Of a stretch of DNA of 34,104 nt, positions 2,813 through 26,351 are shown piece after piece. Position numbers and translations under genes: made by a program. Under the pieces are notes generated by a model, which worked only from the letters and a program-made list of their open reading frames with translations, searched no databases and was not told where the DNA came from. The stretch spans positions 1 through 34,104 of the forward strand of contig LLYT01000020.1 in NCBI GenBank assembly GCA_002049545.1, given 5' to 3'. The DNA comes from Deltaproteobacteria bacterium tcs-42. GTDB lineage: Bacteria; Desulfobacterota; Desulfuromonadia; Desulfuromonadales; Geopsychrobacteraceae. Positions within the stretch are counted from its first letter, which is position 1; every line of letters begins with the position of its first letter.

Positions 2813-3160
2813 CTCGAGATTGACTTCCCCCCACCCATAACGCTGAAGAGTCCGGTCATTCCCTTGGAAAGGTATTTGACCGTCAGTCAAGCCCCGTAGA
2901 TAGCTTCATGCGTCCCGGTTAATGGTATTTTTGAACTCAACTGGAGTGAACTGGACAACCAGATTATTTTGTAACTATTCACCACCACGACTGATAGGGG
3001 CTTGTGGCACCCATGGAAAGGGCGTCTGTCGCCACGGACGGCGACAGTCGAACGGCCATGGACGGCGCAAAGTGGCCCTTGGAATAGGCGCCTCAAGGCA
3101 TTACTGAACAGTTGCATTATTTTTCTGGTCAGCCGGATTCTTCCATGGTAGTGAAACACC
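2813..3160. other. Intergenic region upstream of lysE
   Basis: No gene is visible. It contains a 15 bp inverted repeat TTGAC-cgtca-GTCAA (2876-2890) of the size used by TetR-type repressors, and a MITE (2970-3116) that ends only 44 bases before the lysE start codon. I found no strong promoter between the MITE and lysE, so the lysE promoter lies either inside or upstream of the element. Confidence 0.4.
2970..3116. repeat. MITE family B, copy 1 (147 bp, with 6 bp TSD)
   Basis: Terminal inverted repeats are tgtaactattca (left) and tgaacagttgca (right), 10 of 12 paired. The element is flanked by a perfect direct repeat TTATTT (2964-2969 and 3117-3122), a target-site duplication. It matches the copy at 26196-26297 throughout, except for about 45 extra internal bases that include a ctgtcgcc/ggcgacag hairpin and lie between two ccatgg motifs. 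Confidence 0.85.
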
Positions 3161-3781
3161 ATGATCAACTCCCTCATCATCGGTATGATTCTTGGCCTCT
3201 CCGCGGGGTTCGCCCCTGGCCCTTTAATGACTCTGGTAATTTCCGAGACACTACAGCACAATATCGGCTCCGGGATTAAAGTTGCTCTGGCGCCAATTGT
3301 CACCGACCTGCCGATCATCCTGATAGCGTTGTTCATTCTGGCACAACTCTCCAATTTTCACACCGCCCTGGGGATTGTCTCTCTGGGAGGCGGCCTTTTC
3401 CTGCTACGCCTGGGCTATCAGAACTTAATCACTCAGGGTGTCGATTTGAAGACCCGGGTGGCCAGCCCCAACTCTTTGAGCAAGGGGATTTTGACCAACT
3501 TTCTGAGCCCGCACCCCTATCTGTTCTGGCTCAGCGTTGGCGCACCAACCATGACCGCTGCCATGAACAGCCATCCATCTTCCGGAGTGGCTTTTATCGG
3601 TGGATTTTATTTTTGTCTGGTGGGTGCCAAAATCACTGCGGCCGTACTGACCGGAAAATCGAAATCTTTTCTGACGGGACACAGCTACCGCACGATTATC
3701 CGTTGCCTGGGTCTGTTTTTGATCATTCTGGCTGGAAAACTATTTTATGACGGTCTGACTCTGTTGCAGATCGTGCCATAA
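3161..3781 (+). CDS. LysE/RhtB-family amino-acid exporter
   Basis: 206 residues, the usual size of this family of inner-membrane exporters of amino acids and related metabolites. The N-terminus carries the hallmark GLSAGFAPGPLMTLVISETLQHNIGSG (about 12-38), followed by hydrophobic segments at about 42-64, 68-86, 112-132, 143-163 and 180-202, consistent with six helices. The start has only a weak ribosome binding site. The gene is downstream of gntR but separated from it by a terminator and a MITE. It is followed after 20 bases by the thioesterase gene, so those two are probably co-transcribed. The substrate is unknown; proximity to a KamA-like aminomutase allows export of a beta-amino acid as a guess only. 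Confidence 0.85.
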   Translation: MINSLIIGMILGLSAGFAPGPLMTLVISETLQHNIGSGIKVALAPIVTDLPIILIALFILAQLSNFHTALGIVSLGGGLFLLRLGYQNLITQGVDLKTRVASPNSLSKGILTNFLSPHPYLFWLSVGAPTMTAAMNSHPSSGVAFIGGFYFCLVGAKITAAVLTGKSKSFLTGHSYRTIIRCLGLFLIILAGKLFYDGLTLLQIVP

Positions 3782-3801
3782 GAATCCTCATGGAGGCACC
3801 A

Positions 3802-4305
3802 ATGAACCACAAAATCAAAAATTTTCAGCATATTTCTAAATACTGCCTGGTCTGCGGCACAGAAAATCAGTTCGGCCTCAAAACCAGATTCTTTGAAACA
3901 GAAGAAAAAGAGGTTATCGCCCTGTTTACCCCACGCGAAGAACACCAGAGTTATCCGGGGATTGCCCATGGCGGTGTTTCGGCAGCGTTGCTTGACGAAG
4001 TCATCGGACGGGCAATTATGGCACATTATGGTCAGAACACCTTCGGGGTCACCGTTGACCTACAAGTCAAATACAAGAAACCGGTTCCCCTGGGAGTTGA
4101 ACTCAAAGTGATTGGGCGCGTCACCAATGATCGGGGACGGATTTATGAGGGGACCGGAGAGCTTTATCTTCCCGATGGCAGAATTGCTGCGACAGCACAA
4201 GGAAAGTACATGAAACGGAACCTCGAGCAGATTACCGACAGTGACTTTATCGAAGAAGAGTGGTTCTTGCCGGAAGGTGAATTGCCGGGTGAGATAGTCC
4301 TGTAA
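3802..4305 (+). CDS. PaaI/YbgC-like hot-dog fold thioesterase
   Basis: 167 residues. The central stretch YPGIAHGGVSAALLDEVIGRAI is the PaaI-type hot-dog signature: the HGG loop and the acidic residue in the following helix (D/E in LLDE) form the thioester-hydrolysing site. A second strand set (TVDLQVKYKKPVPLGVELKVIGRV) follows. An N-terminal C-x2-C pair (YCLVCG) and a C-terminal acidic tail are extra. ATG 3802 is preferred over the in-frame ATG at 3790 because TGGAGG lies 6 bases before it. Acyl-CoA hydrolysis is the family role; the specific acyl group is not predictable here. Confidence 0.82.
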   Translation: MNHKIKNFQHISKYCLVCGTENQFGLKTRFFETEEKEVIALFTPREEHQSYPGIAHGGVSAALLDEVIGRAIMAHYGQNTFGVTVDLQVKYKKPVPLGVELKVIGRVTNDRGRIYEGTGELYLPDGRIAATAQGKYMKRNLEQITDSDFIEEEWFLPEGELPGEIVL

Positions 4306-4340
4306 TCAACAGATCAACAACCCCGTATTGGCCCGGCCTG

Positions 4341-5018
4341 TCATGTCGACTTTTGAACTGGTGACGCCCCCTCAACCGATCCGTTTTGGATCTTTATCAG
4401 ATTGCCACCCAAACGTTCTGCCTGAGCAGGATCGTGGGTTGACATGATGACGGTCGTACCATTTTTTGCCAGCTCGCGAAGCAACTGTTCAAAATCGGAT
4501 AGACTGTCATGATCAATATTGGCCATCGGCTCATCCAGTAACAAAACTTCGGGATTCAAAACCAACGCCCTTGCCAGGGCAACCCGTTGAATTTCCCCTC
4601 CTGAAAGATCCTTGATCGGCCGCTGTGCAAAATCGGCCAAGCCAACCTTTGACAGAACTGCGGAAATTCTCACTTTCTGCTCAGCCCGGGGCACCCGCCG
4701 GATTTTCAAACCAAAGGCAATATTGGTGAAGACATCTCCCGAAAACAGGTAAGGAGATTGTTCAACCAGGGTCATTTTACGGCGCCAAGAAAGGCTCTGA
4801 GCGGCAGAGGAATCAAGGGGTTGACCCGAAAAAAATAAAGACCCTTGCTGCGGGGTGAACAAGAGAGCCAGAATTTTTAAAAAAGTGCTCTTCCCGGCTC
4901 CGTTCGAACCACTGACAACATGGATTCTATTTTTGTCGATATCCAGTCGCGGCACTTTCAGGCAAAAGTTTTCGCCAAGGCGGTGTTCAATATTTTTCAG
5001 AGAAAAGACCGGTTCCAT
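4341..5018 (-). CDS. tupC: Tungstate ABC transporter ATP-binding protein TupC
   Basis: About 225 residues with all ABC ATPase motifs: Walker A GSNGAGKST (about 38-46), Q-loop VEQSPYL, signature LSGGEIQRVALARAL (about 139-153), Walker B VLLLDEPMA (about 159-167) and switch histidine STHD. It powers import through TupB. It follows tupB by a few bases. A GTG at 5021 and an ATG at 5018 are both possible starts; MEPVF from 5018 is preferred. It has no C-terminal TOBE domain, unlike ModC, which fits TupC. It converges on the thioesterase gene with 35 bases between stop codons. Confidence 0.87.
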   Translation of the reverse strand: MEPVFSLKNIEHRLGENFCLKVPRLDIDKNRIHVVSGSNGAGKSTFLKILALLFTPQQGSLFFSGQPLDSSAAQSLSWRRKMTLVEQSPYLFSGDVFTNIAFGLKIRRVPRAEQKVRISAVLSKVGLADFAQRPIKDLSGGEIQRVALARALVLNPEVLLLDEPMANIDHDSLSDFEQLLRELAKNGTTVIMSTHDPAQAERLGGNLIKIQNGSVEGASPVQKST

Positions 5019-5022
5019 CACA

Positions 5023-5742
5023 TCACCGTTGCTGAAGAAAGTTCAGACCCAGATTGACCAGCAGGGCCACCGCCATCAGAACCAGTCCGAGCGAAAGACC
5101 GAACGCAAATTCCCCCTTGCTGGTTTCCAGAGCGATGGCGGTGGTCATGGTGCGGGTTGTGCCGCGAATATTACCACCAAGCATCATCGCGATACCGACT
5201 TCGGCAATCACCCGGCCGAAACCTGCAATCACCGCAGCCATCACCCCGAAGCGGATATCGCGCAATAACTGCAGCGAAGCCTGCCAGGAGGTGGCTCCGA
5301 GTGATCGTAAAGTGGGGAGGATCCGGCGATCGGCTCCGATAACAGCAGCGTGAACATAATTGGCCACAATCGGTGTTGCCAGAACCATTTGCCCCAGAAT
5401 CATCGCCGCTGGGGTAAAAAGCAATCCCCAGCCACCCAGTGGCCCCTGGCGACTGAGCACTCCGAACAACAGCAGCCCGACCACAACCGTTGGTAAAGCC
5501 ATCAGGGTATTCAGCAGGGTCACCAAGGCTCGTCTGCCGCGAAACTTGCTGATCCCCAGCCATAAACCGACGGGTATCCCGAGTAGAGACGCCAGCAGAA
5601 TGGCAACGGTCGAAGTATAAAGCGAAGTCCAGACCGTTATTAATACATCTTTGTCAAAGCCGACGATCAGCTTTATTGCCGCCAGTAATGAATCGTACAG
5701 ATAGCCCAATGGTATTCTCCAGGAGACTGTCGAACTTTCCAT
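5023..5742 (-). CDS. tupB: Tungstate ABC transporter permease TupB
   Basis: 239 residues. It is an inner-membrane permease with about five helices and the coupling (EAA) loop at LRSLGATSWQASLQLLRDIRFGVMAAVIAGFGRVIAEVG, followed by MMLGGNIRGTTRTMTTAIALETSKGEF, which is typical of TupB/WtpB. The ATG at 5742 has a poor ribosome binding site. A TTG at about 5709 is preceded by TGGAGA at ideal spacing and would begin at GYLYDSLL, where I expect family members to start, so the true protein may be 11 residues shorter. It is separated from tupA by a 168 bp MITE-like palindrome. Confidence 0.87.
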   Translation of the reverse strand: MESSTVSWRIPLGYLYDSLLAAIKLIVGFDKDVLITVWTSLYTSTVAILLASLLGIPVGLWLGISKFRGRRALVTLLNTLMALPTVVVGLLLFGVLSRQGPLGGWGLLFTPAAMILGQMVLATPIVANYVHAAVIGADRRILPTLRSLGATSWQASLQLLRDIRFGVMAAVIAGFGRVIAEVGIAMMLGGNIRGTTRTMTTAIALETSKGEFAFGLSLGLVLMAVALLVNLGLNFLQQR

Positions 5743-5772
5743 GAATCTACTGCGAAATCGTCCGACACCCCC

Positions 5773-5940
5773 CTAGTGTCGTGTCATGCATGAAATGGCG
5801 GAAAATTGCGCCGGAATTTTGCGTGTCAACTGCGTTACGGTTTTCGCTGCATAGCCGTAGCTATACAGCGGAAACCGTAACGCAGTTGACGCGTAAAAGA
5901 ACCAGCAAGTAGCGACACTTCATGGGTGACACGACACTAG
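5773..5940. repeat. MITE-like palindromic element family C (168 bp) inside the tup operon
   Basis: The tips are perfect 14 bp inverted repeats (ctagtgtcgtgtca at 5773; tgacacgacactag ending at 5940). Inside is a second near-perfect palindrome of two arms of about 31 bases (gtcaactgcgttacgg... from 5825, mirrored to about 5890) around a short loop. The whole would fold into a long hairpin in RNA. TA or CTAG at both ends could be the target duplication. The right tip supplies the TAG stop of tupA. No coding capacity is seen. Confidence 0.85.
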
Positions 5941-6737
5941 TCCTCAACGTAAAAAAGTTGTTCGCTTCCGTGACGAAAACCGGAGATCAAAACCCGAGCC
6001 GATTGACTGGTCAGGTAGTCGAGTAACTTTCGTCCCAGATCGGCCTTGACGTGCGGATGGCGCTGAGGATTGACCATGATGGCGCCGTATGGATTGTACA
6101 GCCTGGTATCCCCTTGGACCGCTATCCGCAATGGAGTTTTTTCTTTAAATGCCAGATAAGTGCCACGATCGGTCAGTGTATATCCCTGTCGTTCTCCTGC
6201 CATGACAATGACTTCACCCATCCCACGACCGGCCTCCAGATACCAGTTCCCGGCGGGAGCCACTCCAGCAGCAGCCCAGAGCTCCTTTTCCCTGGTATGG
6301 GTTCCAGAATCATCACCCCGGGAAACAAAAGTAAACCCGGCAGCGGCAATATGGGCCATCGCAGCGGCGGCATCCTTTTGCCCCTTGATTCCAGCTGGAT
6401 CATCGGTCGGTCCAATAATAACAAAATCATTGTACATGATATCCCGCCGGTCAACGCCAAACCCTTCGGCAACAAACCGGTCCTCTTTGCCGCGGGCATG
6501 GACCAGAATCACATCCACATCACCCGTCTCCCCCAGTTTGATCGCTTTGCCGGTGCCAACGGCAATCACATCGACCTTGCAATTGTTGTGTTGTTCAAAA
6601 GGGGGCAGCAGAATTGTCAATAAACCCGAATTCTCTGTTGAAGTCGTCGTCGCCAGTCGTAGATGGTCAAACGCCGAGGCGGAGCTGCAAAACAGGAGGA
6701 AGATCAGGAGTGACATCAGGATTGTGCTTCGCTTCAT
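5937..6737 (-). CDS. tupA: Tungstate-binding periplasmic protein TupA
   Basis: 266 residues. A signal peptide (1 to about 22, KRSTILMSLLIFLLFCSSASA) is followed by the TupA hallmarks LATTTSTENSG, VGTGKAIKLGETGDVDVILVHA and MYNDFVIIGP. In the family the TTTS and GTGKA loops bind the oxyanion, and TupA proteins prefer tungstate over molybdate. ATG 6737 follows AAGGAG with 9 bases between and gives a clean signal peptide; an upstream in-frame ATG at 6761 has none. The gene follows modE by 65 bases and is probably co-transcribed. Its stop codon lies in the tip of the family C element, so the last residues (VED) may differ from relatives. Confidence 0.9.
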   Translation of the reverse strand: MKRSTILMSLLIFLLFCSSASAFDHLRLATTTSTENSGLLTILLPPFEQHNNCKVDVIAVGTGKAIKLGETGDVDVILVHARGKEDRFVAEGFGVDRRDIMYNDFVIIGPTDDPAGIKGQKDAAAAMAHIAAAGFTFVSRGDDSGTHTREKELWAAAGVAPAGNWYLEAGRGMGEVIVMAGERQGYTLTDRGTYLAFKEKTPLRIAVQGDTRLYNPYGAIMVNPQRHPHVKADLGRKLLDYLTSQSARVLISGFRHGSEQLFYVED

Positions 6738-6802
6738 CTGTTTTTTCTCCTTTTTGCTCACCCCGAACTGTGCTCAAGGGCAGGTTCCGGGGATAACCCG
6801 TA

Positions 6803-7606
6803 TCATTCAACTCCAACGATGACACTGGTCGACTTGATGATGGCGCAGACTTCATCCCCCTCCTGCAAGCCCAGATTACGGACACTGCTGTCGGTAATTG
6901 TTGCGGTCATCGTTTCACCGGCACCGATATCAAGGACAACCTCCCCGACGACCGTACTTTCGGTGATTTTTGCAATCTGGCCGGTAATCCGGTTCTTGGC
7001 ACTGATCTTCAAAGCAAGGTGATTGTCGGCAATCATCACCGCAGAGGCTTTCACCACCGCATAAGCTGAAGATCCAACCTCCAGCCCTAAAGCATCAACA
7101 CTGTCAGTACTGATCACCGCCGTCATCTGATGTCCCGATTTCAACTGCAGAACAACCTGAGAGACCGAAATATCGCGAACAATGTCACAGACCGTTCCCG
7201 AAAAAACATTTTTGGCACTGATGCGCATGGAGATCCTTTGTAGCAGGGGAAGATAGTTGTTGAAATCGCCCAGTGATTCTTCCAGCCGCGCAAGCATCCC
7301 CCGATGCTCCGCGTCAACCAGTCGGTAGAGATGAACAACCTTTTTCCCCGCATCGGTCAGCCGGGTTCCGCCGCCGCCAGAACCACCCGTAGCAGCCACC
7401 GTTAGAGGCTGATCAGCAAGATTATTCATCAGATTCAAAGCATCCCAGGCCGTTTTGTAACTCATCCCCGCTACCTTGGCGGCCGTAGAAATAGAGCCAC
7501 ACTGATCAATCTGTTCGAGCAGATCAATCCGATTGCCACCCAGAAAATTCTGCGCTCCTTTCTGCACCCACAAAGGGGCTGTCACCACAACTTTAGATTG
7601 ATTCAT
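6803..7606 (-). CDS. modE: ModE-type molybdate/tungstate-responsive regulator
   Basis: 267 residues, the full ModE length. An N-terminal LysR-like winged helix (about 20-115) contains LLEQIDQCGSISTAAKVAGMSYKTAWDALNLMNN and the wing GGSGGGGTRLTDAGKKV. Two Mop/TOBE oxyanion-binding domains follow (about 128-190 and 198-266), each beginning with an ISAKN-x2-(S/T)G motif. The family dimerises, binds molybdate or tungstate and represses uptake genes. It is the first gene of the unit ahead of tupA, and a ModE box overlaps its own promoter, so negative autoregulation of the whole tup operon is expected. Confidence 0.92.
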   Translation of the reverse strand: MNQSKVVVTAPLWVQKGAQNFLGGNRIDLLEQIDQCGSISTAAKVAGMSYKTAWDALNLMNNLADQPLTVAATGGSGGGGTRLTDAGKKVVHLYRLVDAEHRGMLARLEESLGDFNNYLPLLQRISMRISAKNVFSGTVCDIVRDISVSQVVLQLKSGHQMTAVISTDSVDALGLEVGSSAYAVVKASAVMIADNHLALKISAKNRITGQIAKITESTVVGEVVLDIGAGETMTATITDSSVRNLGLQEGDEVCAIIKSTSVIVGVE

Positions 7607-7730
7607 AACCCGCCAGAGGATTAGTATTCAGGGAAGATAGCAGCAAAACCGGGATTGCCCCGCAAGGGTGGGGGCAGTCCTGACACCATCCTTATGTACT
7701 CCCTGAATACAGATTTCGAGGATACAACCT
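7607..7730 (-). ncRNA. Structured 5' leader of modE-tupABC, possible riboswitch
   Basis: The transcript predicted from the promoter at 7737-7765 has a leader of about 124 nt. A perfect 11 bp stem (gtattcaggga 7624-7634 with tccctgaatac 7700-7710) encloses an inner 10 bp GC-rich hairpin (7652-7661 with 7671-7680, one C-A mismatch on the minus strand, a G-U wobble if read on the plus strand). The closing stem ends only 17 bases from the ATG, close to the ribosome binding site. Molybdenum-cofactor riboswitches precede such genes in related bacteria, but I cannot match this RNA to that consensus. The wobble pattern leaves the direction open, so it could also be a palindromic repeat. Confidence 0.4.
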
Positions 7731-7733
7731 CAT

Positions 7734-7757
7734 CGTTATATAGTTGAATACATAACG
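7734..7757. promoter_or_regulatory. ModE-binding operator
   Basis: The site reads CGTTATAT, 7 bases, TACATAACG: the same half-sites and spacing that I recall for the E. coli modA operator. It overlaps the -10 hexamer and spacer of the modE promoter, so bound ModE would block RNA polymerase. Confidence 0.88.
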
Positions 7758-7765
7758 AATGTCAA
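7737..7765 (-). promoter_or_regulatory. Sigma-70 promoter of modE-tupABC
   Basis: On the minus strand TTGACA (7765-7760), a 17-base spacer and TATATA (7742-7737) form a near-consensus promoter. The predicted start is near 7730. The ModE box covers the -10 element. Confidence 0.8.
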
Positions 7766-7836
7766 TGGGGAGTTGTCCCGGGTTTTTCCGGTGCATCGGG
7801 GACGTTGCGCCCAAGCGTGAAAAATGGAAGTGTGAA

Positions 7837-9048
7837 TTACTTTTTCGGCCCCTGTGGCAATCGCAGGGAGATACATCCGGCAAGCAAAACAAATCCCGCT
7901 GAAACCCACAAGCAGCCAACCAGTCCCGCCAGTTGAAATACAATCCCCGACAGTAGAGTGCCGATTAAGCGCCCGGCGGCGTTGGCCATATAGTAGAAGC
8001 CGACGTTGAGTGAAACTTGGTCGGTTTCGCTGTAGGCGAGAATCAGATAGGAGTGGACCGAGGAATTGATGGCAAAGATCAGGCCGAACAGTGCCAGTCC
8101 GACAACCACCGTCATCCAGGGTGAAAGCTCAAGGGCCACACCGACAGCAATCAACGCTGTCAGGACGGTGAGAGCAAAGGCTCCGGTACTGGCGGTGCCA
8201 CCGCGAGGCGTGCCGCCCCGTAGAGATGATTGCAGCAGCTTCGGTGCCAATGCCTGCACGCCACCATAGCCGATCACCCAGAGGGCGAGAAAACCGCCGA
8301 TCTGAGTGTGACTCCAGTTCAAGGATGCGGAGAGGAATACCGGCAGGCCGACGACGAACCAGATATCACGTGAGCCGAACAGGAACAGTCGCGCCGCCGA
8401 GAGCAGGTTGATGTTGCGACTCTTGGAGAAAATGGCGGAAAACCTGGTTTTCGTTTTCGCCATGCCGATCTCTTGCGGTAGAGAGATCATGGTTCCCGCC
8501 AGAACCAACACCAAGCCTGCCGCCAGCAGCCACAGAGAATTGCGGAAACCCAACAGGGTCAGCAGCAGGCCACCGAGGAAAAACCCCGCCCCTTTAAGGG
8601 CGTTTTTCGAACCGGTCAGCACCGCCACCCATTTAAACAGGGTACTGTCGGCATTTTCCGGCACCAGCACCTTGATGGCGCTCTTGCTGCTCATCTTGGT
8701 CAGGTCTTTGGCAATGCCGGAGAGTGCCTGCAGGCCCATCACATAGGCAACCGATAGCAGGGGTGGCCAATTCGGGTCGAGCAGACCAAGGCTGAAAAGG
8801 GCGAGGATCTGCAGGGTAAGTCCGCTTAACAGGGTAACCTTCAGCCCCATATTCGAACCGATCCAGCCCCCGATCAGGTTGGTGAGTACACCAAAGAATT
8901 CGTAGAGCAGAAACAAAAAAGCGATCTGCACAGCACTGTAGCCAAGATCATGGAAATGGAGCAGCACCAGCATGCGCAGGGCACCGTCGGTGAGGGTGAA
9001 GCCCCAGTAGGCGGCGGTGACAAGGCTGTAGTTTTTTATGTTGGTCAA
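7837..9048 (-). CDS. arsJ: ArsJ-type organoarsenical (1-arseno-3-phosphoglycerate) exporter, MFS
   Basis: 403 residues with about 12 membrane helices. The N-terminus (NYSLVTAAYWGFTLTDGALRMLVLLHFHDLGY), the LSGIAKDLTKMSSKSAIKVLVP stretch and INLLSAARLFLFGSRDIWFVVGLPVFL are what I know from ArsJ, which exports the unstable arsenate ester of 3-phosphoglycerate. ArsJ normally works with a GAPDH that makes this compound, encoded next to it; none is present here, nor an arsR. The start is TTG at 9048 with AGAGGA 6 bases upstream. Downstream is the modE promoter region. Either the GAPDH partner is elsewhere or the system is incomplete. Confidence 0.82.
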   Translation of the reverse strand: MTNIKNYSLVTAAYWGFTLTDGALRMLVLLHFHDLGYSAVQIAFLFLLYEFFGVLTNLIGGWIGSNMGLKVTLLSGLTLQILALFSLGLLDPNWPPLLSVAYVMGLQALSGIAKDLTKMSSKSAIKVLVPENADSTLFKWVAVLTGSKNALKGAGFFLGGLLLTLLGFRNSLWLLAAGLVLVLAGTMISLPQEIGMAKTKTRFSAIFSKSRNINLLSAARLFLFGSRDIWFVVGLPVFLSASLNWSHTQIGGFLALWVIGYGGVQALAPKLLQSSLRGGTPRGGTASTGAFALTVLTALIAVGVALELSPWMTVVVGLALFGLIFAINSSVHSYLILAYSETDQVSLNVGFYYMANAAGRLIGTLLSGIVFQLAGLVGCLWVSAGFVLLAGCISLRLPQGPKK

Positions 9049-9317
9049 TTTTTATCCTCTTCAATCAGTTTTCTATTTCTACCGGATTCGGCACTTTACC
9101 GACTGTCAGCAGCCTGAGTGGCGTTGGTCGCCAGCATCAGTGCCAGGGCGACGGAGAATCCACCGGTAATATACCATTTCGAAGCATAGATCGTATACCA
9201 GAGACCGGGGCCATTCCTCTTCGGTCATCATCACTGACGCAGCGGATTTTACACCTTGTTGCTATCGTCCTGTCACGTTAAAAGCCTTGGAATGAAAGGA
9301 TAAAGACAATACAAAAG
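9049..9317. other. Intergenic region with a possible gene remnant
   Basis: No complete gene. On the minus strand, just upstream of arsJ, a frame ending at a TAA near 9104 reads SKWYITGGFSVALALMLATNATQAADSR. It looks like a membrane or signal segment, but it has no start and is preceded by stop codons. It may be the remnant of a gene that once preceded arsJ; I cannot identify it. Confidence 0.3.
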
Positions 9318-9626
9318 TTGCCAGCCATGATACTGACAACCCTGCTGATCGCGTGTACAGCAACCGCTGAAGTCCCTCAGGGTATGGCAGGAGCTACTTT
9401 TGTCGGGCACTGCTACTCTATCGGCGCCAGCACTCTGGGTGGAAAACCGGATTTCATCTCCGTTGATCCGGTCTGGAGTAGCGCGCGGGAAGGCGATCGG
9501 GTTATATTTAACTCTGAGGGAATCTCCATAACTCAGCTTGAGAACTGGTTGAAAGAGGCTGACACTTATATCAGCCCCCTCGAAACGTCCATAATCAAGG
9601 ACCCTGCAAAGGAGATAACACAATGA
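9318..9626 (+). CDS. Small putative lipoprotein coupled to msrB (unrecognised)
   Basis: About 102 residues. The start MILTTLLIACTATAE contains a plausible lipobox (LIAC), and the remainder is a soluble domain of about 85 residues with HCYSIGASTLGGKPDFISVDPVWSS. I do not recognise the family. Its stop codon overlaps the msrB start (ATGA), and the msrB ribosome binding site lies inside it, so translation is probably coupled. The start is uncertain: TTG 9318 and ATG 9327 both lie too far from the AAAGGA at 9294-9300. An ATA codon at 9309 would have ideal spacing and would add the lysine expected in a signal peptide. Confidence 0.6.
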   Translation: MPAMILTTLLIACTATAEVPQGMAGATFVGHCYSIGASTLGGKPDFISVDPVWSSAREGDRVIFNSEGISITQLENWLKEADTYISPLETSIIKDPAKEITQ

Positions 9627-10192: not shown

Positions 10193-10203
10193 CGGAGGAT
10201 AAA

Positions 10204-18835: not shown

Positions 18836-18837
18836 AT

Positions 18838-19113: not shown

Positions 19114-19255
19114 ATTTTTAACTCTCCTTTTAGTTTTGATGGCGTCGAAAAAGCCCACCGCAAACGTCAATGTTCCCGGTTAAAAGGGAGCAGCACAAGA
19201 TCTGCAACCGGTACATTGATCCAGAATTGTGACGGCCATCAAATTATTTTTCACC

Positions 19256-20443
19256 TCAAGGGGTTTTGGGGGTTTTTACTTTGCCCTTAACCAGCCTTCT
19301 GATTTTTTTCTTCACTCCGTTGACCACAAAAGGGGTTGCACGACCTCGCTCGAGAAGCCGTTTTTTCATCATCTCCCGACGATTCAGTGGTGGCGTATAA
19401 TTTTCATTGCAATCAACCATCGACAAAGCCCCTTGATGACAAACCGATATGCAGGCGCCACAACCAAGACAAACCTGTTCTTGTAGCTGTACCGGTTGCT
19501 TTACCTCATCAATTTTCAGGGCAGCAACGTTACAGGCTGTGACGCAAAGCCCGCAACTGTTACACAGCTCCTCATCAACTTTAAGGATAAAGGGTGCCTT
19601 GGCAACCCCTTCAGAAAAACCGGCTTGCACCCCGGCCAACAACTCGCAACAGCAAGAACAACAGTTACAGATAAATGATGGCTTGTGGCGGATATTATCG
19701 GTGATATGGGTGAGGTTAAGCTGACGCGCCCGATCCAAAATTTCGAGAAGTTGTTCAGCTGTTTGTTCTTTGGCAAATCCCCGCCGTACCAGAAATTTGG
19801 CGCCGGTGCCAAGAGAGATACAGATATCCTCCATGGGAGCCCCCTTGATGCAATCTTCCCCCAAATGGTGCTTCTTGTGTCGGCAATAACAGAGACCAAC
19901 GGCTCCATATTCAGCACCATTGATAATCTCACGGGCGTTCTCATAACTGGTCACAGTGGAACTGGTCGGGATCTTGTCTTCGTAAACCAAAGCGCGGGTG
20001 AGTGGCGTTTTGCTATCAAAAAATTCCTTTGCCATCCCTTCCCGGGGAGTTTCATATAGATATTCCTGCATCAACCGGGAAATCTTTTCCTTGGGCAGGT
20101 CGGTGCGGTTTTTCATAAAGGTCAATTCAAAAAACCCGATCAACCCGGGTAACAACAGATAGTAAACCTCCCCTTCATAAGGAAGATCCATCACCAGACC
20201 CTTTTCACACATCTGTTCTAACTGCGGCTGAAGCTCCACCCCGGAAATACCCGTAACATCGGTCAACTCTGCCAGAGTTGCTTCTTCAAGTGGAAAACGG
20301 GAGGCAATAAAAGCTTCATTTTCGGCAAACAACAGGGACAGAATTTCCCGTAATTTTTCGCTGTCGGGGAGTCCGACCGGATATTTATTCAAACGATCTA
20401 TCAAGGGGACGATACTGCTCTTGCTGCCAACATGATGACCCAT
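19256..20443 (-). CDS. Cysteine-rich Fe-S protein with winged-helix-like N-terminus and two 4Fe-4S ferredoxin motifs
   Basis: 395 residues. The N-terminal part (about 35-100: LEEATLAELTDVTGISGVELQPQLEQMCEKGLVMDL) looks like a winged helix. The middle has CYCRHKKHHLGEDC (about 195-210) and CNCCSCCC (about 272-280). The C-terminal half has two ferredoxin motifs, CNSCGLCVTACN and CLGCGACISVCHQ, and a basic tail. I recognise this as a type found beside acyl-CoA metabolism genes in anaerobes, but its function is not established. As the last gene of a beta-oxidation cluster it is a candidate electron carrier for the acyl-CoA dehydrogenases, since no etfAB is in the window. TTAAGGAG precedes the ATG. 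A redox-sensing regulatory role is the alternative. Confidence 0.75.
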   Translation of the reverse strand: MGHHVGSKSSIVPLIDRLNKYPVGLPDSEKLREILSLLFAENEAFIASRFPLEEATLAELTDVTGISGVELQPQLEQMCEKGLVMDLPYEGEVYYLLLPGLIGFFELTFMKNRTDLPKEKISRLMQEYLYETPREGMAKEFFDSKTPLTRALVYEDKIPTSSTVTSYENAREIINGAEYGAVGLCYCRHKKHHLGEDCIKGAPMEDICISLGTGAKFLVRRGFAKEQTAEQLLEILDRARQLNLTHITDNIRHKPSFICNCCSCCCELLAGVQAGFSEGVAKAPFILKVDEELCNSCGLCVTACNVAALKIDEVKQPVQLQEQVCLGCGACISVCHQGALSMVDCNENYTPPLNRREMMKKRLLERGRATPFVVNGVKKKIRRLVKGKVKTPKTP

Positions 20444-20564
20444 TGTAACTCCTTAAAATATCTGTTCTCTGGTTGGCACTGATAGCCCCGGGTGGCCAAA
20501 GGCCGGATGAGGGGGCCTTTTTAGCGTTTCTATTTCCTTCACCCGGCCCCTCTGAGGAAGAATT

Positions 20565-22265
20565 TTATTCGGCCATCTGGTAACAGTCTTCCAGTTCAAT
20601 CACCTGCTTCCAGAGCTGTTCAAAGCTGGATTGATCCTGTGCTGGTTTTTTGATCATCAGTTGGAAAATCTCTTCCTGTGCAGGAAGGTTATTGTGGTTG
20701 AGAATCATCTGCAAGGCAAAATTGGCATAATCTCGAATCAGAAAATCAAAAATCTGTTCCAGCAGATCACTTTCAACCTGGTAGATTCGACTGTTTTCCA
20801 GAATCAGCTGAGCATAAACAACCAAAGTGAACAACTCCCCCGCCGCCAGCATATAATCGATATTTTTCATCTGTTCCGATGTTGGTGGTGCCTCAATCAG
20901 CAGCCTCCGGAACAGCTCCACCTGTTCCCGGAATATGCCGATATTTTCTGACTCGAAACCTTGATAGGCGCGTCGATAATCGGGGAAATGGATTTTTGCC
21001 AAACCTCCGGTGAACTGGCTGAACAGATAGTTATCATCGGCAATGTCGTTACGTCGGGGAATATCAGGGTAATCGACCGGTTCAAAGAAATAGTTGCGGA
21101 TAAATTTGACGTTCAGCGCCATATTGACGTGCTCGGTCCCTTCCAGTTTAGGGAGCATCCCGATATCGCGGAGTGCCATTTCGAAGTAGGTATCCTGCTC
21201 AAAACCTTTCGCGGCGATAATATCGTGGAGCTGATTCACCACCTTCTCCCCCTGCGAAGTCACCTTCATTTTGACGATCGGATTGAAGAGCAAATAACGC
21301 CGGTCATCATCAGAGGCACTGCGCAGATAATCGCCGGCACGCAGGGCAAACAGTTTGGCGGCATTTAAGCGGGCATAGGCTTCGGTCATGGTTTTACGCA
21401 CGTGGGGGAAATCGGTCACAAACTGACCATAAAGACTACGTTTTGCGGCATGATTGAGAGCTTCATAAAAACAGTGGGTGGCAATTCCGATGGCAGCAAA
21501 CCCAAGCTCGAATTTACCAATATTGACCGTACTTAAAGAGGAATCCCAGGCCAGTTGCCCCACTGAAAGAATCTCTTCTGGCGTAATCGGGTAATCGTGC
21601 AGACAGTATTCGGCAACATAAGCTTGACGGACACCGGAGGTGTCAATTTTTTTGACACACTCGTAGTTGGGGTGATCGCTTTTGACCACAAAAAATACAT
21701 ATTCACCGGTATCGGCAAGTTTGCCGAAAGTTGAAACCAGAGCGGCACAATTGCCATTACCAATGTAATATTTTGAGCCCCGTGCCAGCCAGGATCCGTC
21801 CTGCTGTGGATAAAGCATCACTTCACTGGAATAGAGATCGGCTCCATGATCTTTTTCCGACAGACCAAAAGCAAACACCCCGCCATCCTGGAGTTGTTGT
21901 GCGGTTTCGTGTTTAACGGCTTCGTTATCCCCCATCCAGATTGGCCCCAATCCAAGGATGGAAACTTGCCAGGCATACCAGTAGCAAAGACCATAAAAAG
22001 CCAGAACTTCGTTAAACTCACCAATCCGCCACATATCCCAGCGGGAATCGTCGGCGCCGTAGCCAGCCGGGGTGAGCATGGTCGCAAATACTTTTTCCTC
22101 TTTGATAAAAGCGAGGAAATCGTCATACCAGAGCATCGCCTGATCATCTTCCTTGATCTGTTTCAGCCCTTTCTTTTCAAAAAAACTGATGGTTTTCTCC
22201 ACCAGTTGACGTGATAGTTCGTCGGCATGTTCACGCTGATATTTGTGTGGATTAAAAAGGAGCAT
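20565..22265 (-). CDS. Atypical acyl-CoA dehydrogenase family protein
   Basis: 566 residues, longer than a classical acyl-CoA dehydrogenase (about 380) and divergent from the one at 26364. Family features are FAFGLSEKDHGADLYSSEVML (flavin/substrate loop), YYIGNGNCAALVSTFGKL, FELGFAAIGIATHCFYEALNHAAKRSLYGQFVTDFPHVRKTM, and LEGTEHVNMALN, where the glutamate of EGT is at the usual catalytic-base position. A helical C-terminal extension follows (about 410-566). ATG 22265 is fixed by CAGGAGGG; the upstream in-frame ATG at 22352 lacks one. It would insert a double bond into an acyl-CoA; the substrate range is unknown. It lies between the enoyl-CoA isomerase and Fe-S protein genes. Confidence 0.8.
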   Translation of the reverse strand: MLLFNPHKYQREHADELSRQLVEKTISFFEKKGLKQIKEDDQAMLWYDDFLAFIKEEKVFATMLTPAGYGADDSRWDMWRIGEFNEVLAFYGLCYWYAWQVSILGLGPIWMGDNEAVKHETAQQLQDGGVFAFGLSEKDHGADLYSSEVMLYPQQDGSWLARGSKYYIGNGNCAALVSTFGKLADTGEYVFFVVKSDHPNYECVKKIDTSGVRQAYVAEYCLHDYPITPEEILSVGQLAWDSSLSTVNIGKFELGFAAIGIATHCFYEALNHAAKRSLYGQFVTDFPHVRKTMTEAYARLNAAKLFALRAGDYLRSASDDDRRYLLFNPIVKMKVTSQGEKVVNQLHDIIAAKGFEQDTYFEMALRDIGMLPKLEGTEHVNMALNVKFIRNYFFEPVDYPDIPRRNDIADDNYLFSQFTGGLAKIHFPDYRRAYQGFESENIGIFREQVELFRRLLIEAPPTSEQMKNIDYMLAAGELFTLVVYAQLILENSRIYQVESDLLEQIFDFLIRDYANFALQMILNHNNLPAQEEIFQLMIKKPAQDQSSFEQLWKQVIELEDCYQMAE

Positions 22266-22311
22266 ATTTGACCCTCCTGAATTTGTTATAGAGAGTTTCG
22301 AGAAAAACAGT

Positions 22312-23091
22312 TTAAGAAAATTGCGAAAAATCGGCTTTGCGTTTTTCGGCAAAAGCGTTGATAGCTTCCTGCGCCTCAGGCCTGGCCAATTGTTGCAGAA
22401 ACAATTTCCCCTCTTTACCCATCACTTCAGCAACCTGCCGAGCCTGATTTTCTTTCAGCAGAGACTTTGTCAAGCGCACCGACGCTGGTGGTTGTGCAGC
22501 CAGTTGAGATGCTTTCTGCATGACCTGTCCGGACAAATCGGCAGCTGGAAAAGTACAATTAACCAGCCCAAGCTCCAACGCTGTTTCAACATCAAGTGTC
22601 TCCCCAAGGAGCAATATCTCTGAAGCACGTAAGTAGCCCACCAACTTAGGCAACAAATAACTTGATGCCGCCTCTGGACAAAGCCCGAGATTAACGAAGG
22701 GGAGTTTGAATTTGGCGGTTTCATCGGCATAAACCAGATCACAATGAAGCAGCATGGTGGTCCCAATACCAACGGCAGAACCACTGACCATGGCAATGAC
22801 CGGCTTTTGTGCCTGACTGATCGCCCGTAGAAAACGGAATACCGGGCTATGCTCTCCTGCGGGTGGATTTTCAGCGAAATCACTCAGATCGTTACCGCTG
22901 GTAAAGCAGTTCTCTGTCCCGTGAATCATAATCACGCGAACCTGATTGTCAACTTCTGCAGATTCGATAGCTGCGGTCATGGCATCGTACATTGCCAGGG
23001 TTAAAGCATTCAGTTTATCCGGCCGCTGGATACCAATCTTGAAGACCTCTCTATCGAGGGAGGTCGTTACCAACTCAATTTCATTAGCCAT
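22312..23091 (-). CDS. Enoyl-CoA hydratase/isomerase (crotonase family), isomerase-like
   Basis: 259 residues with the crotonase fold: oxyanion-hole segments CFTSGNDLSDF (about 62-72) and SGSAVGIGTTMLLHCDLVYADE (about 104-125). The hydratase glutamate expected in a QPE-type motif is absent (KLPFVNLGL), while CPEAASSYLLPKLVG supplies a glutamate at the position used by ECI2/PECI-type delta3,delta2-enoyl-CoA isomerases. That suggests double-bond shifting rather than hydration and fits the adjacent 2,4-dienoyl-CoA reductase. This residue assignment is from memory of the families. It is 15 bases after fadH and 46 before the acyl-CoA dehydrogenase, clearly in one operon. Confidence 0.83.
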   Translation of the reverse strand: MANEIELVTTSLDREVFKIGIQRPDKLNALTLAMYDAMTAAIESAEVDNQVRVIMIHGTENCFTSGNDLSDFAENPPAGEHSPVFRFLRAISQAQKPVIAMVSGSAVGIGTTMLLHCDLVYADETAKFKLPFVNLGLCPEAASSYLLPKLVGYLRASEILLLGETLDVETALELGLVNCTFPAADLSGQVMQKASQLAAQPPASVRLTKSLLKENQARQVAEVMGKEGKLFLQQLARPEAQEAINAFAEKRKADFSQFS

Positions 23092-23106
23092 TATTTGATC
23101 CCGTCT

Positions 23107-25113
23107 TTAGAGAATATCCCGACCTGCCGCAAATCCCTGGTGAATTGCATCAAAAACCATCGCTGGCCGATTTGCATCACCAACGACCTGGCAGGGAATC
23201 TGTTGTTCGGCGGCCATTTTCTGCACCGGATTACAGGTCCTGGTTCCGACAGCGAGAACAACCGTATCAGCTAAAATTTCCCGACGTTGTCCCGATTGTT
23301 CAATCACGACTCCAGCTGGGGTTATTTCGCGAACTTCAGCCTCAGGGCAAGTATCAATTGCGGCTCGTTTGACGTCTTGCAACATGCTCCAACGGGTCGA
23401 TTTACCAAAATTTGCCCCCAGTTTATCGATCATTTCGATCAAAGTGACGTGCTTGTTGCCTGTCGTAGCAAGACGATAGAGTTCCTCTGCAGTTTCGGCC
23501 TGACTTACCAGGAGAAACTTCAATTCATCTCCCGACAGGGTCCCCTGCTCGGCGAGCAGCAAAGCTGTTTCAATCCCGACAGCACCACCACCGATAATTG
23601 CGATCTTCCGCCCCGTAGTCACTTTTCCAGCCAGAACATCCCAGGCCTGTACGACATGCGGAAGATCGGTACCGGGGACCTTCGGCACAATCGGGGTTCC
23701 CCCCGTAGCCAGGATCAAGGCTTCCGGTTTTTGCTCTGCCAGTAACGGGGCATCAACCACTGTATTGGTCACAATCTGCACATCCAGATCTGCCAGTTGT
23801 TGTTGCAGGTCAACGGCCAGTCCCAGAAACTCTTCCCGCCCCGGTGGAGCACCGGCGAGATGGAGCTGTCCACCTAGAGTCAGACTTTGTTCATAAAGGG
23901 TAACTCGATGACCTTGTTCCGCTGCTGCGATTGCGGCACTCATTCCGGCAGCCCCACCCCCGACAACCATCAGCTTGCGGGGCTGTTCGGTCATCTGCGC
24001 CCGGGTTTCCGTTTCCTTGCCCACCCGGGGGTTACAGAGGCATTCGACTGGCTTCATCTTAAATAGATTATCAAAACAGCCCTGAGCACAAGCGACACAG
24101 TGGATGATTGTGTTGTCCCGATGTTCTCGTGCCTTGTTCGGCAGCTGCGGATCGGCAATCAAAGATCGCCCCATGGCAACCATGTCGCAGGAACCTGCAC
24201 CGATCAGCTGACGTGCCACATCGGGATCGTTGATCCGGTGACCAGCAATCACCGGAACGTTCACTTCGTTGCGAATATCCCGCGCCAGATAACTGAACAC
24301 TCCACGGGGGACCTTGGTGACAATCTGCGGAACCTGAGCTTCATGCCAACCGACATTGATAGAAAGGGCGTCGGCACCGGCATCGACCAATTGAACGGCA
24401 AAAGTCTTTAATTCATCACGCCCAATCCCATTCGGCATAAAATCATTGCCGTTGATTCTGACCAGTAGCGGAAAATCGGCGCCGGTTGTTTCTTTGACCG
24501 CTCGAATGATCTCCAGGCCGAAACGCATCCGGTTTTCCAGACTGCCGCCATACTGATCCTGACGTTGGTTGGTCAACGGCGAAAGAAACTCACTTATCAG
24601 ATAACCGGTACCCGCGAGAATTTCCACCGCATCAAATCGGGCGGCTTTAACTCTCCCGGCTGCAGCGGCAAACCGTTGAATGATTGCAGGGATTTCATCC
24701 GCCTCGAGTTCACGGGGCGTTTCGCGGGTCATCCTCGATGGAATTGGCGAGGGGGCCACCGGCTTTTTCCCACCCAGAAACATCGAAAAATTATACCGCC
24801 CGGCATGATTGAGTTGAACGCATGCCGCCGCCCCGCCGTCTTTGATCGCAGTCGCCAGATCTGTCAGGCCGGGGATAAATGCATCGCTATGGGCACCGAT
24901 ATTACCGGGGAGCCCCGAAAGTTCGTCAACAGTTGCGTAACCAACATTGATCATTGCAACACCGCCGCTGGCTCGCTCACGATAAAAATCGATCAGTTGA
25001 TCGGTCACAACAAATTTACGGCACATATTCATGTGCATCGCCGGCATCAGAATCCGGTTTTTCAGCTTCAGATGGCCCAGTGAAATGGGGTCGAATAGTC
25101 GATCAGATTGCAT
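23107..25113 (-). CDS. fadH: NADH:flavin oxidoreductase / 2,4-dienoyl-CoA reductase FadH
   Basis: 668 residues, the size of bacterial FadH. An N-terminal FMN-binding TIM barrel (1 to about 335) includes ILAGTGYLISEFLSPLTNQRQDQYGGSLENR with the catalytic tyrosine and INVGWHEAQVPQI with the catalytic histidine. The Fe-S ligands are CVACAQGCFDNLFKMKPVECLCNP. FAD- and NAD(P)H-binding domains follow, with two dinucleotide motifs, VVGGGAAGMSAAIAAAEQG and IIGGGAVGIETALLLAEQG. It reduces 2,4-dienoyl-CoA during breakdown of unsaturated fatty acids. It lies 24 bases after the MBL gene and just ahead of the isomerase. Relatives of this fold also act on other enones and amines, but the fad context favours FadH. 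Confidence 0.88.
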   Translation of the reverse strand: MQSDRLFDPISLGHLKLKNRILMPAMHMNMCRKFVVTDQLIDFYRERASGGVAMINVGYATVDELSGLPGNIGAHSDAFIPGLTDLATAIKDGGAAACVQLNHAGRYNFSMFLGGKKPVAPSPIPSRMTRETPRELEADEIPAIIQRFAAAAGRVKAARFDAVEILAGTGYLISEFLSPLTNQRQDQYGGSLENRMRFGLEIIRAVKETTGADFPLLVRINGNDFMPNGIGRDELKTFAVQLVDAGADALSINVGWHEAQVPQIVTKVPRGVFSYLARDIRNEVNVPVIAGHRINDPDVARQLIGAGSCDMVAMGRSLIADPQLPNKAREHRDNTIIHCVACAQGCFDNLFKMKPVECLCNPRVGKETETRAQMTEQPRKLMVVGGGAAGMSAAIAAAEQGHRVTLYEQSLTLGGQLHLAGAPPGREEFLGLAVDLQQQLADLDVQIVTNTVVDAPLLAEQKPEALILATGGTPIVPKVPGTDLPHVVQAWDVLAGKVTTGRKIAIIGGGAVGIETALLLAEQGTLSGDELKFLLVSQAETAEELYRLATTGNKHVTLIEMIDKLGANFGKSTRWSMLQDVKRAAIDTCPEAEVREITPAGVVIEQSGQRREILADTVVLAVGTRTCNPVQKMAAEQQIPCQVVGDANRPAMVFDAIHQGFAAGRDIL

Positions 25114-25137
25114 TGGATTTTCCTGTCTGTGATTGAA

Positions 25138-26079
25138 TCAGTCGACGGCATAGCCGAATTGATCGGCGACCTGAGAAAACAGGTCCATCTCAATCAGCAC
25201 ATCCCGCAAAATATCTGGCTCCGCTAGAAAATCGCGGAGAAAAACAATTTCGGATCCCTTCAGATAACTGATAAATGGATGGGTGGCTTCGTCCTTGAAT
25301 AATTGAGCGACAATCTCTGCTGCGGAGATATTCATCGACCACTGCTTGATTCGAGCTGCCCGCGCCAACAGTTTATCGACATAAAACAGTAAGCAGCTGT
25401 CGACACTATCGATCCTTTTACGATGGCCGGGCAAAATCTGTTTATCACGCAATGTCACCAGCTTGGTCAGGCTGTCACAATAAGCGACATAGTTTTTAAA
25501 GCGCTCTCCAGTTAACAGATCAACATCAAGAAGTGGCGTTTGAAAAATCCCCCGCAACATAACATCACCGGTAATCGCCCAGTCGTCGCCGATCAACACC
25601 ATGTCACTTTGAGAATGGCCCGGGCAGGCAAGGGTCGTTAATCCCAACTGTTGCGGAAGGCCTTCTTCAATAACTTTAAAGTTCTCGGGCAACGGAGGGA
25701 AAACGCTACCGTCATCCATACTGCCCCGGAATTGTTCGAGAAAGGAAGCCTTAAAGCCGATCTGCAACAGCAAATCGTACATCAGCTCCAGCCGTTCGGT
25801 ATGTCGGGTAATTTTGAGGTGATCGCGAAAGGGGAGGTAAACCGTGGCAGAAGTTTCTTCTCCCAACCATCGCGCCAGTCCATAATGGTCAATGTGACAG
25901 TGGGTCACAATGACGTGCTTAAGCCGCTCAAGATCGAGATTTTCCTGCAAATACTGCTTCCCGTTAGCGGTCGGTGGCCCGGTATCAAAAAGAACCAGTT
26001 CACCATCGATTTCGGCACTGTAGCAGTGGACTGCACCGACAGCGTATTCGGTATTTATAGTGTGTTGAGTGGGGGGCAT
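25138..26079 (-). CDS. MBL-fold metallo-hydrolase in the fad cluster
   Basis: 313 residues. Metal ligands of the metallo-beta-lactamase fold are all visible: VIVTHCHIDHYGL (HxHxDH), CPGHSQSDMVLIG (third histidine), WAITGDVMLRG (bridging aspartate) and ILPGHRKRID (final histidine). A helical C-terminal domain (about 225-313) is added, as in LACTB2-like and similar hydrolases. It probably hydrolyses a thioester or ester; position in a beta-oxidation operon suggests acyl-CoA or a related CoA ester, which is inference. The ribosome binding site is weak. It is separated from the upstream dehydrogenase by 284 bases of repeats, so it may begin its own transcript with fadH and the rest. Confidence 0.82.
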   Translation of the reverse strand: MPPTQHTINTEYAVGAVHCYSAEIDGELVLFDTGPPTANGKQYLQENLDLERLKHVIVTHCHIDHYGLARWLGEETSATVYLPFRDHLKITRHTERLELMYDLLLQIGFKASFLEQFRGSMDDGSVFPPLPENFKVIEEGLPQQLGLTTLACPGHSQSDMVLIGDDWAITGDVMLRGIFQTPLLDVDLLTGERFKNYVAYCDSLTKLVTLRDKQILPGHRKRIDSVDSCLLFYVDKLLARAARIKQWSMNISAAEIVAQLFKDEATHPFISYLKGSEIVFLRDFLAEPDILRDVLIEMDLFSQVADQFGYAVD

Positions 26080-26128
26080 ATAAAGTCAGATTCCAAGAGC
26101 AGCGGGTAGCAAGAAAATCAAAAGCATC

Positions 26129-26351
26129 AACGCAGAGGCGGAGCGTTGCAGAGAAAGCAAAAGCCAGTTCAATTAAACTTGAAACAAAAAAGATTTGTAA
26201 CTATTCACCACCACTACTGATAGGGGCTTGTGGTACCCATGGCCGGCGCAAAGTGGCCCTTGGAATGGGTGCCTCAAGGCATTGCTGAACAGTTACAAAG
26301 ATTTTTGCCTTTCTCTGCGTACTCCACACTTCTCCGCGTCTCTGCGTTAAA
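26129..26351. repeat. CGCAGAG-type palindromic repeat interrupted by a MITE
   Basis: Left arm aacgcagaggcggagcg...gcagagaaagcaaaa (26129-26162) is mirrored by the right arm tttgcctttctctgcg...ctctgcgtt (about 26304-26348). Repeats rich in CGCAGAG units are scattered in many bacterial genomes. The family B MITE with its own target duplication lies between the arms, so it inserted into this older palindrome. Confidence 0.55.
26196..26297. repeat. MITE family B, copy 2 (102 bp, with 6 bp TSD)
   Basis: Terminal inverted repeats tgtaactattca and tgaacagttaca (11 of 12 paired) are flanked by a perfect direct repeat AAGATT (26190-26195 and 26298-26303). The sequence aligns to copy 1 (2970-3116) but lacks about 45 internal bases between two ccatgg motifs, as if deleted by recombination between them. 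Confidence 0.88.

What the first reader, a model, noticed from the sequence alone, without database searches (positions are those of the whole stretch)
2964..26303. MITE family B: two copies, each with a perfect 6 bp target duplication
The copies at 2970-3116 and 26196-26297 share tgtaactattca/tgaacagtt(a/g)ca termini and most of their interior. One is flanked by TTATTT on both sides and the other by AAGATT on both sides. Two different exact 6 bp duplications at the predicted borders are strong evidence for true transposition of a small non-autonomous element. Copy 1 sits just before lysE, copy 2 inside the fad cluster. No autonomous parent is in the window.
Basis: seen in the sequence. Interest (0 to 1): 0.68.

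Follow-up and report, generated by a model that had tools for sequence, protein, structure and literature searches.

The report
Tiny jumping DNA with RNA hairpins
The two repeats are copies of a small jumping DNA element, present dozens of times in this bacterium, whose full-length form carries a conserved pair of RNA-type hairpins that look like docking sites for the regulatory protein CsrA, so a transposon may be spreading regulatory decoys; the jumping is well supported, the docking is only predicted.

Summary
The repeats are real and transposed, but the duplication is 8 bp, not 6. The element is GTAAC…GTTAC, 145 bp (2971-3115) and 100 bp (26197-26296), flanked by ATTATTTT and AAAGATTT. In this genome at least 66 places match; 32 of 41 bounded copies have exact 8-bp duplications. 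A related empty site for copy 2 is intact. IS66-family insertion sequences with the same ends occur in relatives, two with 8-bp duplications; none was found here. The surprise is the interior: full-length copies hold a three-way junction with two ANGGAN-loop hairpins. In 121 copies from other genomes the loops vary only at the two N positions (others ≤2%), stems covary (20 sequences), and G-U outnumbers A-C 302:51. Relatives match Rfam TwoAYGGAY, proposed in print to bind CsrA. In one gammaproteobacterium the same head rides on unrelated MITE ends. Against a regulatory role: no orientation bias (38 sense, 36 antisense), loops kept in assemblies without detected csrA, headless copies also moved. 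CsrA binding is untested.

The parts
2971..3115 (+). Copy 1: full-length 145-bp element, ends GTAACTATTCA / TGAACAGTTGC
2963..2970 (.). 8-bp target-site duplication ATTATTTT, left of copy 1
3116..3123 (.). 8-bp target-site duplication ATTATTTT, right of copy 1
2998..3022 (+). Outer stem of the RNA-type fold, 5' arm
   Evidence: structure, window row of alignment A2
3076..3100 (+). Outer stem, 3' arm (some mismatches in this copy)
3026..3047 (+). Hairpin 1, CTGTCGCC-ACGGAC-GGCGACAG; CANGGANG match at 3033-3040
3052..3075 (+). Hairpin 2, loop ATGGAC at 3058-3063; CANGGANG match at 3057-3064
26197..26296 (+). Copy 2: 100-bp internally deleted form, no CANGGANG site left; identical to the element at L002 elsewhere in the genome
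26189..26196 (.). 8-bp target-site duplication AAAGATTT, left of copy 2
26297..26304 (.). 8-bp target-site duplication AAAGATTT, right of copy 2
26111..26358 (.). Older short palindromic repeat (CGCAGAG type) into which copy 2 inserted; uninterrupted paralogue at L392

Best explanation
The repeat family is a non-autonomous IS66-type element (MITE) of the ISBst12 kind. A single-gene IS66 transposase acting in trans on the ends GTAACTATTCA / GTAACTGTTCA copied it into AT-rich 8-bp targets in a recent burst (at least 66 places here). Between the ends the full-length form carries a TwoAYGGAY-like RNA module: a 25-pair outer stem topped by two hairpins with ANGGAN loops. When a copy is transcribed on its GGA strand, the RNA should present two CsrA (RsmA) sites 24 nt apart and so tether or titrate CsrA. 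SHOWN here: ends, 8-bp duplications, copy number, a related empty site, insertion sequences with the same ends in relatives, covarying structure, loop pattern, G-U strand asymmetry, a csrA gene in this genome. INFERRED: that such a transposase (or a lost relative) moved these copies, that the RNA is made, that it binds CsrA, and that this has any effect.
For: Mobility: 32 of 41 copies with exact 8-bp TSD; empty-site paralogue with one AAAGATTT; nearest relative of a copy lies in the same genome for 40/40, 40/40, 36/37 and 6/6 copies in G037, G079, G000, G072, less clearly in G024 (5/7) and G017 (1/4). Parent type: six of the 23 IS66 loci examined (of 27 fetched) end in GTAACTATTC(A/T), two with exact 8-bp TSDs (L307, L313), one with 6 of 8 (L306), three without; NCBIfam IS66 transposase 282.6-285.4 bits for the three tested, ORFs of 472-518 aa; IS66 transposase in 14 of 44 element-bearing versus 4 of 92 other genomes of the order (not corrected for kinship). 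RNA: 39-pair fold on 20 sequences from four genomes of three genera, 92.7% of cells paired, 18 pairs changed on both sides (shuffles 9.3, 0/500), slid controls 36.7-47.2%. Loop positions in 121 copies depart from the commonest base by 2,34,0,2,2,42% and 2,38,0,1,2,45%, the ANGGAN pattern. GU:AC cells 302:51, columns 27:6. Rfam RF01731 over threshold in relatives: L174 50.9, L160 47.4, G280 11 of 12 matches; 2 of 10 genomes searched have a match over threshold, 7 more only below it. The RMfam paper predicted that TwoAYGGAY binds CsrA (PMC4333381, passages). csrA found in G000. Unrelated MITE ends around the same head in G278.
Against: Copies between co-directional genes are 38 sense to 36 antisense, so insertions show no selection for a read-out strand. 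In this genome G-U also exceeds A-C by cells (102:23) but not by columns (GU>AC in 11, AC>GU in 12), so mutations since the burst show no upkeep of the fold. Sixteen of 44 element-bearing genomes have no csrA match (my tally; many are incomplete), and copies there keep GGA in the loops. The headless 100-bp form occurs twice, identical, with different TSDs, so the head is not needed in cis for movement. The window copy scores only 19.2 bits against RF01731 (threshold 43) and this genome has no match at E 0.01. Copies for the loop and GU counts were found by a head pattern and structure model, which favours intact heads. The insertion sequence with matching ends was seen in only 4 of 44 element-bearing genomes (G018, G072, G079, G106) and in one without detected element (G128). 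No transcript or binding data.
Confidence: 0.6

Rival explanations
1. Ordinary IS66-type MITE whose palindromic interior is passive ballast; the fold and loops look conserved only because copies are young, descend from few masters, or were chosen with a head pattern and structure model.
For: No orientation bias; no fold upkeep by columns in the own-genome burst; headless form moved; ascertainment by model R1.
Against: Covariation across three genera in alignment A2; within one genome (G079) outer stems differ yet pair while the loops vary almost only at N2 and N6; strand-asymmetric G-U excess; same head on unrelated MITE ends in another class.
Confidence: 0.25
2. The head is functional but not through CsrA: another RNA-binding protein, or single-stranded DNA structure used at replication or transposition, keeps it.
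For: Loops retained in assemblies without detected csrA; G-T pairs are also tolerated in single-stranded DNA (recalled).
Against: The fixed and free loop positions fit the CsrA motif class that others matched to TwoAYGGAY (PMC4333381, passages; the CANGGANG wording is recalled); headless copies still moved.
Confidence: 0.13
3. As first read: a MITE with 6-bp duplications and an unknown, unrelated parent.
For: The 6 bp named are duplicated in both copies.
Against: The outermost bases vary with the target; 8-bp duplications in 32 of 41 copies.
Confidence: 0.02

Closest known systems
IS66 family, ISBst12 group (for example ISDge4, PMC12898284, passages seen)
   Same: Ends of the same type (ISDge4: GTGACTACTCAGCA / GTAACTGCTCAGCA) and an 8-bp direct repeat; the insertion sequences found here in relatives have one IS66 transposase ORF.
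   Different: No transposase, 100-146 bp; shares only about 11-16 terminal bases with those insertion sequences, so it is not a simple internal deletion of the ones seen.
TwoAYGGAY RNA, Rfam RF01731 (PMC2864571, table row seen; PMC4333381, passages seen)
   Same: Two adjacent hairpins with AYGGAY loops and an outer stem; relatives exceed the Rfam threshold.
   Different: The passages seen name human gut, Gammaproteobacteria and Clostridiales/Clostridia and say nothing of mobility; here it lies inside a transposing repeat in Desulfuromonadales, and the window copy is below the Rfam threshold.
CsrB/RsmY-type CsrA-sequestering sRNAs
   Same: GGA motifs in hairpin loops, generally in pairs (PMC4383904 and PMC4333381, passages).
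   Different: Those are a few sRNA genes per genome (two to four named in PMC11882849, passages); these are dozens of dispersed copies with no shown promoter or expression.

Membership tests
MITE (non-autonomous DNA transposon) | Short, inverted terminal repeats, no transposase ORF | tested here: met
   100-146 bp; ends GTAACTATTCA / GTAACTGTTCA
MITE (non-autonomous DNA transposon) | Target-site duplication and empty site | tested here: met
   32 of 41 exact; related (paralogous) empty site L392 for copy 2; copy 1 not testable
IS66 family | 8-bp target duplication | tested here: met
   8-bp DRs called characteristic in PMC11946415 (passages)
IS66 family | Terminal GTAAGCG as cited for IS66 (PMC11946415) | tested here: not met
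   Ends are GTAACTATTCA; this resembles the ISBst12-group example ISDge4, not classic IS66 ends, so the claim is 'IS66-type, ISBst12-like', not classic IS66
IS66 family, ISBst12 group | Autonomous relative with same ends and single IS66 transposase ORF | tested here: met
   L307, L313 with exact TSD; L299, L306, L308, L309 ends alike; ORFs read in L307, L313, L299 only; none in own genome
IS66 family, ISBst12 group | Movement by that transposase | not testable with these tools
   needs a transposition assay
TwoAYGGAY RNA (RF01731) | Two adjacent hairpins with AYGGAY loops | tested here: met
   ACGGAC and ATGGAC in copy 1; not in copy 2
TwoAYGGAY RNA (RF01731) | Rfam gathering score 43 bits | tested here: not met
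   window copy 19.2 bits, 0 matches in G000 at E 0.01; relatives L174, L160, G280 exceed it, so the copy is called TwoAYGGAY-like, not a member
CsrA-binding RNA | GGA in hairpin loops, paired sites | tested here: met
CsrA-binding RNA | Binding to CsrA | not testable with these tools
   no experimental data

The most novel reading that the evidence does not exclude
MITEs of unrelated transposon families have repeatedly taken up the same double CsrA-site RNA and spread it to dozens of places per genome, so that a selfish element's cargo acts as a dispersed CsrA sponge (or brings inserted genes under CsrA) in Desulfuromonadales. In the nearest studied group no CsrB-type sRNA has been characterised (stated for Geobacter sulfurreducens in PMC13407953, passages), although three have been predicted there (PMC11934962, passages).
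Probability: 0.2. Interest if true: 0.88.

Novelty: new variant of a known kind. Interest (0 to 1): 0.64.

Why it matters
It gives the orphan TwoAYGGAY RNA a genomic life style (cargo of small transposons, of at least two unrelated kinds) and may link a global post-transcriptional regulator to mobile DNA. If CsrA binds it, each burst of transposition would change the cell's supply of CsrA sites at once, a route for transposons to rewire regulation that can be tested directly in isolates of this order. Even if it does not, the ANGGAN loops and covarying stems in a selfish repeat need another explanation.

Tried and rejected
IS66 transposase in the own genome: none. TwoAYGGAY-like head inside the nine IS66 loci searched: none, so the MITE is not a deletion of those. 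Host-level selection by orientation: not seen (40 of the 42 printed copies of each of G037 and G079 were fetched; L245 was lost by the pattern, one G037 and one G000 copy overlapped a gene call, and copies without genes called on both sides were dropped). Loss of loops in csrA-less assemblies: not seen in 20 copies fetched from five such assemblies; the head pattern showed only part of some, missed L324, and L334 has TTGGAT instead of ANGGAN in loop 2, but GGA stands in every loop shown whole. The 20 csrA-positive copies looked the same, with L335, L347, L348 and L353 not read properly. csrA association: 28 of 44 element-bearing against 39 of 92 other genomes of the order (my tally from the lists; weak and not corrected for kinship or completeness). 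Empty site for copy 1: no relative in the genus search keeps a match upstream of the element. For copy 2 four relatives have 101-140 bp between the flanking matches against 278-287 here, without an alignable target. A palindrome kept by template-switch repair was considered; it should not leave a strand-biased G-U excess (reasoning, not tested). Literature: the ten searches listed no paper of the held open-access library that I could see to tie TwoAYGGAY or CsrA sites to a MITE; several lists were capped (for example 15 of 1,683 papers, 40 of 897) and only passages of 12 papers were seen. PMC5864184 and PMC11882849 passages describe ordinary Csr sRNAs; PMC3189936 passages describe MITEs of other families.
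Full report
OBSERVATION. Comparing many copies shows that the base before GTAAC and the base after GTTAC change from copy to copy; they are target, not element. The element is therefore GTAAC...GTTAC, and the duplication is 8 bp: ATTATTTT for copy 1 and AAAGATTT for copy 2. In the same genome, 41 complete distinct copies could be bounded; 29 are 145 bp, the rest 100-146 bp; 32 have identical 8-bp flanks, 4 match 7 of 8, 5 match fewer, and none of 1640 mismatched pairings match. The rows printed make 66 distinct places, 77 with the end-pattern sites. These lists are capped (40 candidates scored), so 66 is a lower bound; the 90 model matches may count both strands of one palindromic copy. Several matches lie at contig ends, so the assembly seems to break in them.

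EMPTY SITE. Copy 2 interrupts an older palindromic repeat. A paralogue of that repeat in a species of the same genus (L392) aligns to the joined flanks over 150 columns at 78% with a single AAAGATTT at the junction. At the orthologous site four relatives have 101-140 bp between the matched flanks where this genome has 278-287. Copy 1 could not be tested: in relatives the match starts only downstream of the element.

PARENT. The 8-bp duplication and GTAA start pointed to IS66 (8-bp DRs called characteristic in PMC11946415, passages). The IS66 transposase model finds nothing in this assembly but hits 18 of 136 genomes of the order. Of the 23 loci examined (of 27 fetched), six have ends GTAACTATTC(A/T). 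L307 and L313 have exact 8-bp duplications, AATAAAAG and CTTGTTTT; L306 matches 6 of 8; L299, L308 and L309 have none. These six are 1702-1728 bp. In the three read (L299, L307, L313) one ORF of 472-518 aa is named IS66 transposase by NCBIfam. That resembles the ISBst12 group, whose member ISDge4 has a single ORF, ends GTGACTACTCAGCA / GTAACTGCTCAGCA and an 8-bp repeat (PMC12898284, passages). L299 even starts GTAACTATTCACCACC like the window element. Beyond about 11-16 terminal bases the MITE looks unrelated to them, and they hold no such head. Movement in trans is therefore inferred. Element-bearing genomes have an IS66 transposase more often (14 of 44 against 4 of 92, Fisher p 2.9e-5), without correction for kinship; only four of those 14 have the matching ends (G018, G072, G079, G106), others have GTAAGCG or were not bounded, and the fifth genome with matching ends (G128) has no detected element.

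THE INTERIOR. Homologues in other genera keep a core while the ends decay (the copies were chosen by the core, which favours this picture). The core folds into a 25-pair outer stem topped by two hairpins. On 20 sequences from four genomes of three genera and 39 pairs, 92.7% of cells pair, 18 pairs have double-sided changes (shuffle mean 9.3, 0 of 500), and sliding the partners gives 36.7-47.2%. In 121 copies from other genomes both loops are A-N-G-G-A-N: departures from the commonest base are 2, 34, 0, 2, 2, 42% in loop 1 and 2, 38, 0, 1, 2, 45% in loop 2. Outside the loops other head positions vary too, among them the paired 37-52 and 34-55, which change together. G-U cells outnumber A-C cells 302 to 51 (27 columns to 6), which points to the GGA strand as the folded strand. 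In the own genome the 44 copies have 102 to 23 cells but 11 to 12 columns: a few fixed G-U pairs and otherwise no bias, as for young copies.

IDENTITY OF THE HEAD. Rfam TwoAYGGAY (RF01731) matches relatives above its threshold: L174 (Geoalkalibacter, 50.9 bits), L160 (gammaproteobacterium, 47.4) and 11 of 12 matches in that gammaproteobacterial genome (G280). Of ten genomes searched with it, two have matches over the threshold, seven only below it, and this genome none at E 0.01. The window copy scores 19.2, so it is TwoAYGGAY-like and not filed as a member. The RMfam paper (PMC4333381, passages) had already proposed that TwoAYGGAY binds CsrA. I had written down the CsrA reading from the loops before that match (note).

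DISTRIBUTION. The model finds the core in 44 of 277 genomes of the class, all in the own order (136 genomes), with 13 candidates scored per genome. In four other genomes searched deeper it gives 84-142 matches of 150 candidates, strands perhaps counted twice; the printed rows show 42 distinct places each for G037 and G079 (my count). A pattern scan of named genomes gives 28 stretches: 24 from Desulfuromonadales or records labelled Deltaproteobacteria or Geobacteraceae, 4 from Gammaproteobacteria. Copies are mostly closest to others of the same genome, as separate bursts would give.

A SECOND CARRIER. In gammaproteobacterial genome G278 the same head lies between other inverted repeats, AACCTGAACTCGGGATAAGA. 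Of its 14 RF01731 matches 13 have the pair, 12 of them 203-206 bp long and one 184 bp, and 7 of 11 testable have an exact 4-bp duplication (six of the form ANNT, one AATA; two more were cut by contig ends). So one RNA head rides on two unrelated MITE types. In this window a third repeat (family A, 1874-2031) also has two GGA-loop hairpins; all four SCCANGGANGGS sites of the window lie in these repeats (0.5 expected).

AGAINST A REGULATORY ROLE. Between co-directional genes, copies are 38 sense and 36 antisense (G037 13:11, G079 17:12, G000 8:13). csrA is found in 28 of 44 element-bearing genomes and not in 16 (my tally), many of them incomplete; copies from five csrA-less assemblies keep GGA in every loop shown whole. 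The 100-bp form, without any CANGGANG site, occurs twice, identical, with different duplications: it moved without the head. So the head is not needed in cis to jump, and what keeps it is open.

VERDICT. The mobile element is secure (my confidence about 0.95). The RNA nature of the head is likely (about 0.7). CsrA binding is a sound, untested prediction (about 0.5), and a biological effect is open (about 0.2).

Noticed in passing
window 1873-2034 and 34014-34104: A different repeat family (ends AGCAGGCTGTTGAAAAA / AACAGGATGTTGAAAAA) also folds strongly (z -7.2) and also carries two GGA-loop hairpins, GCCC-ATGGAC-GGGC and CCC-AGGAT-GGG. Only the first copy is complete; the second is cut by the contig end.
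   Followed up: partly
L401, L409, L415, L417-L427 (G278): TwoAYGGAY heads between inverted repeats AACCTGAACTCGGGATAAGA with 4-bp duplications: an unrelated MITE with the same cargo.
   Followed up: partly
L399, L414, L428-L436 (G280): TwoAYGGAY copies in another gammaproteobacterium share sequence outside the fold (for example ACAAAAGCAGGATATGG on the left), so they may be part of yet another dispersed repeat; ends not determined.
   Followed up: no
window 26111-26196 and 26305-26358: Copy 2 sits inside an older CGCAGAG-type palindromic repeat that has further copies in the same genus.
   Followed up: partly
G000 contigs C3, C13, C50, C72, C118 and others: Several contigs of the assembly begin or end in or next to an element copy, so the repeats probably limit the assembly.
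   Followed up: no
L163 3474-3814: Two TwoAYGGAY-like heads 319 bp apart in Neiella litorisoli.
   Followed up: no
window 5773-5940: Nested inverted repeats, 39-nt arms 90% complementary with 4 nt between, flanked by 28-nt arms.
   Followed up: no
window 28180-28253 and 29447-29520: GTAGGGGCGCTGCTTGC palindromic repeat units on both sides of the ORF 28257-29429.
   Followed up: no
L289, L291, L295: Classic IS66 elements with GTAAGCG ends and 7 or 8 matching flank bases in relatives.
   Followed up: no
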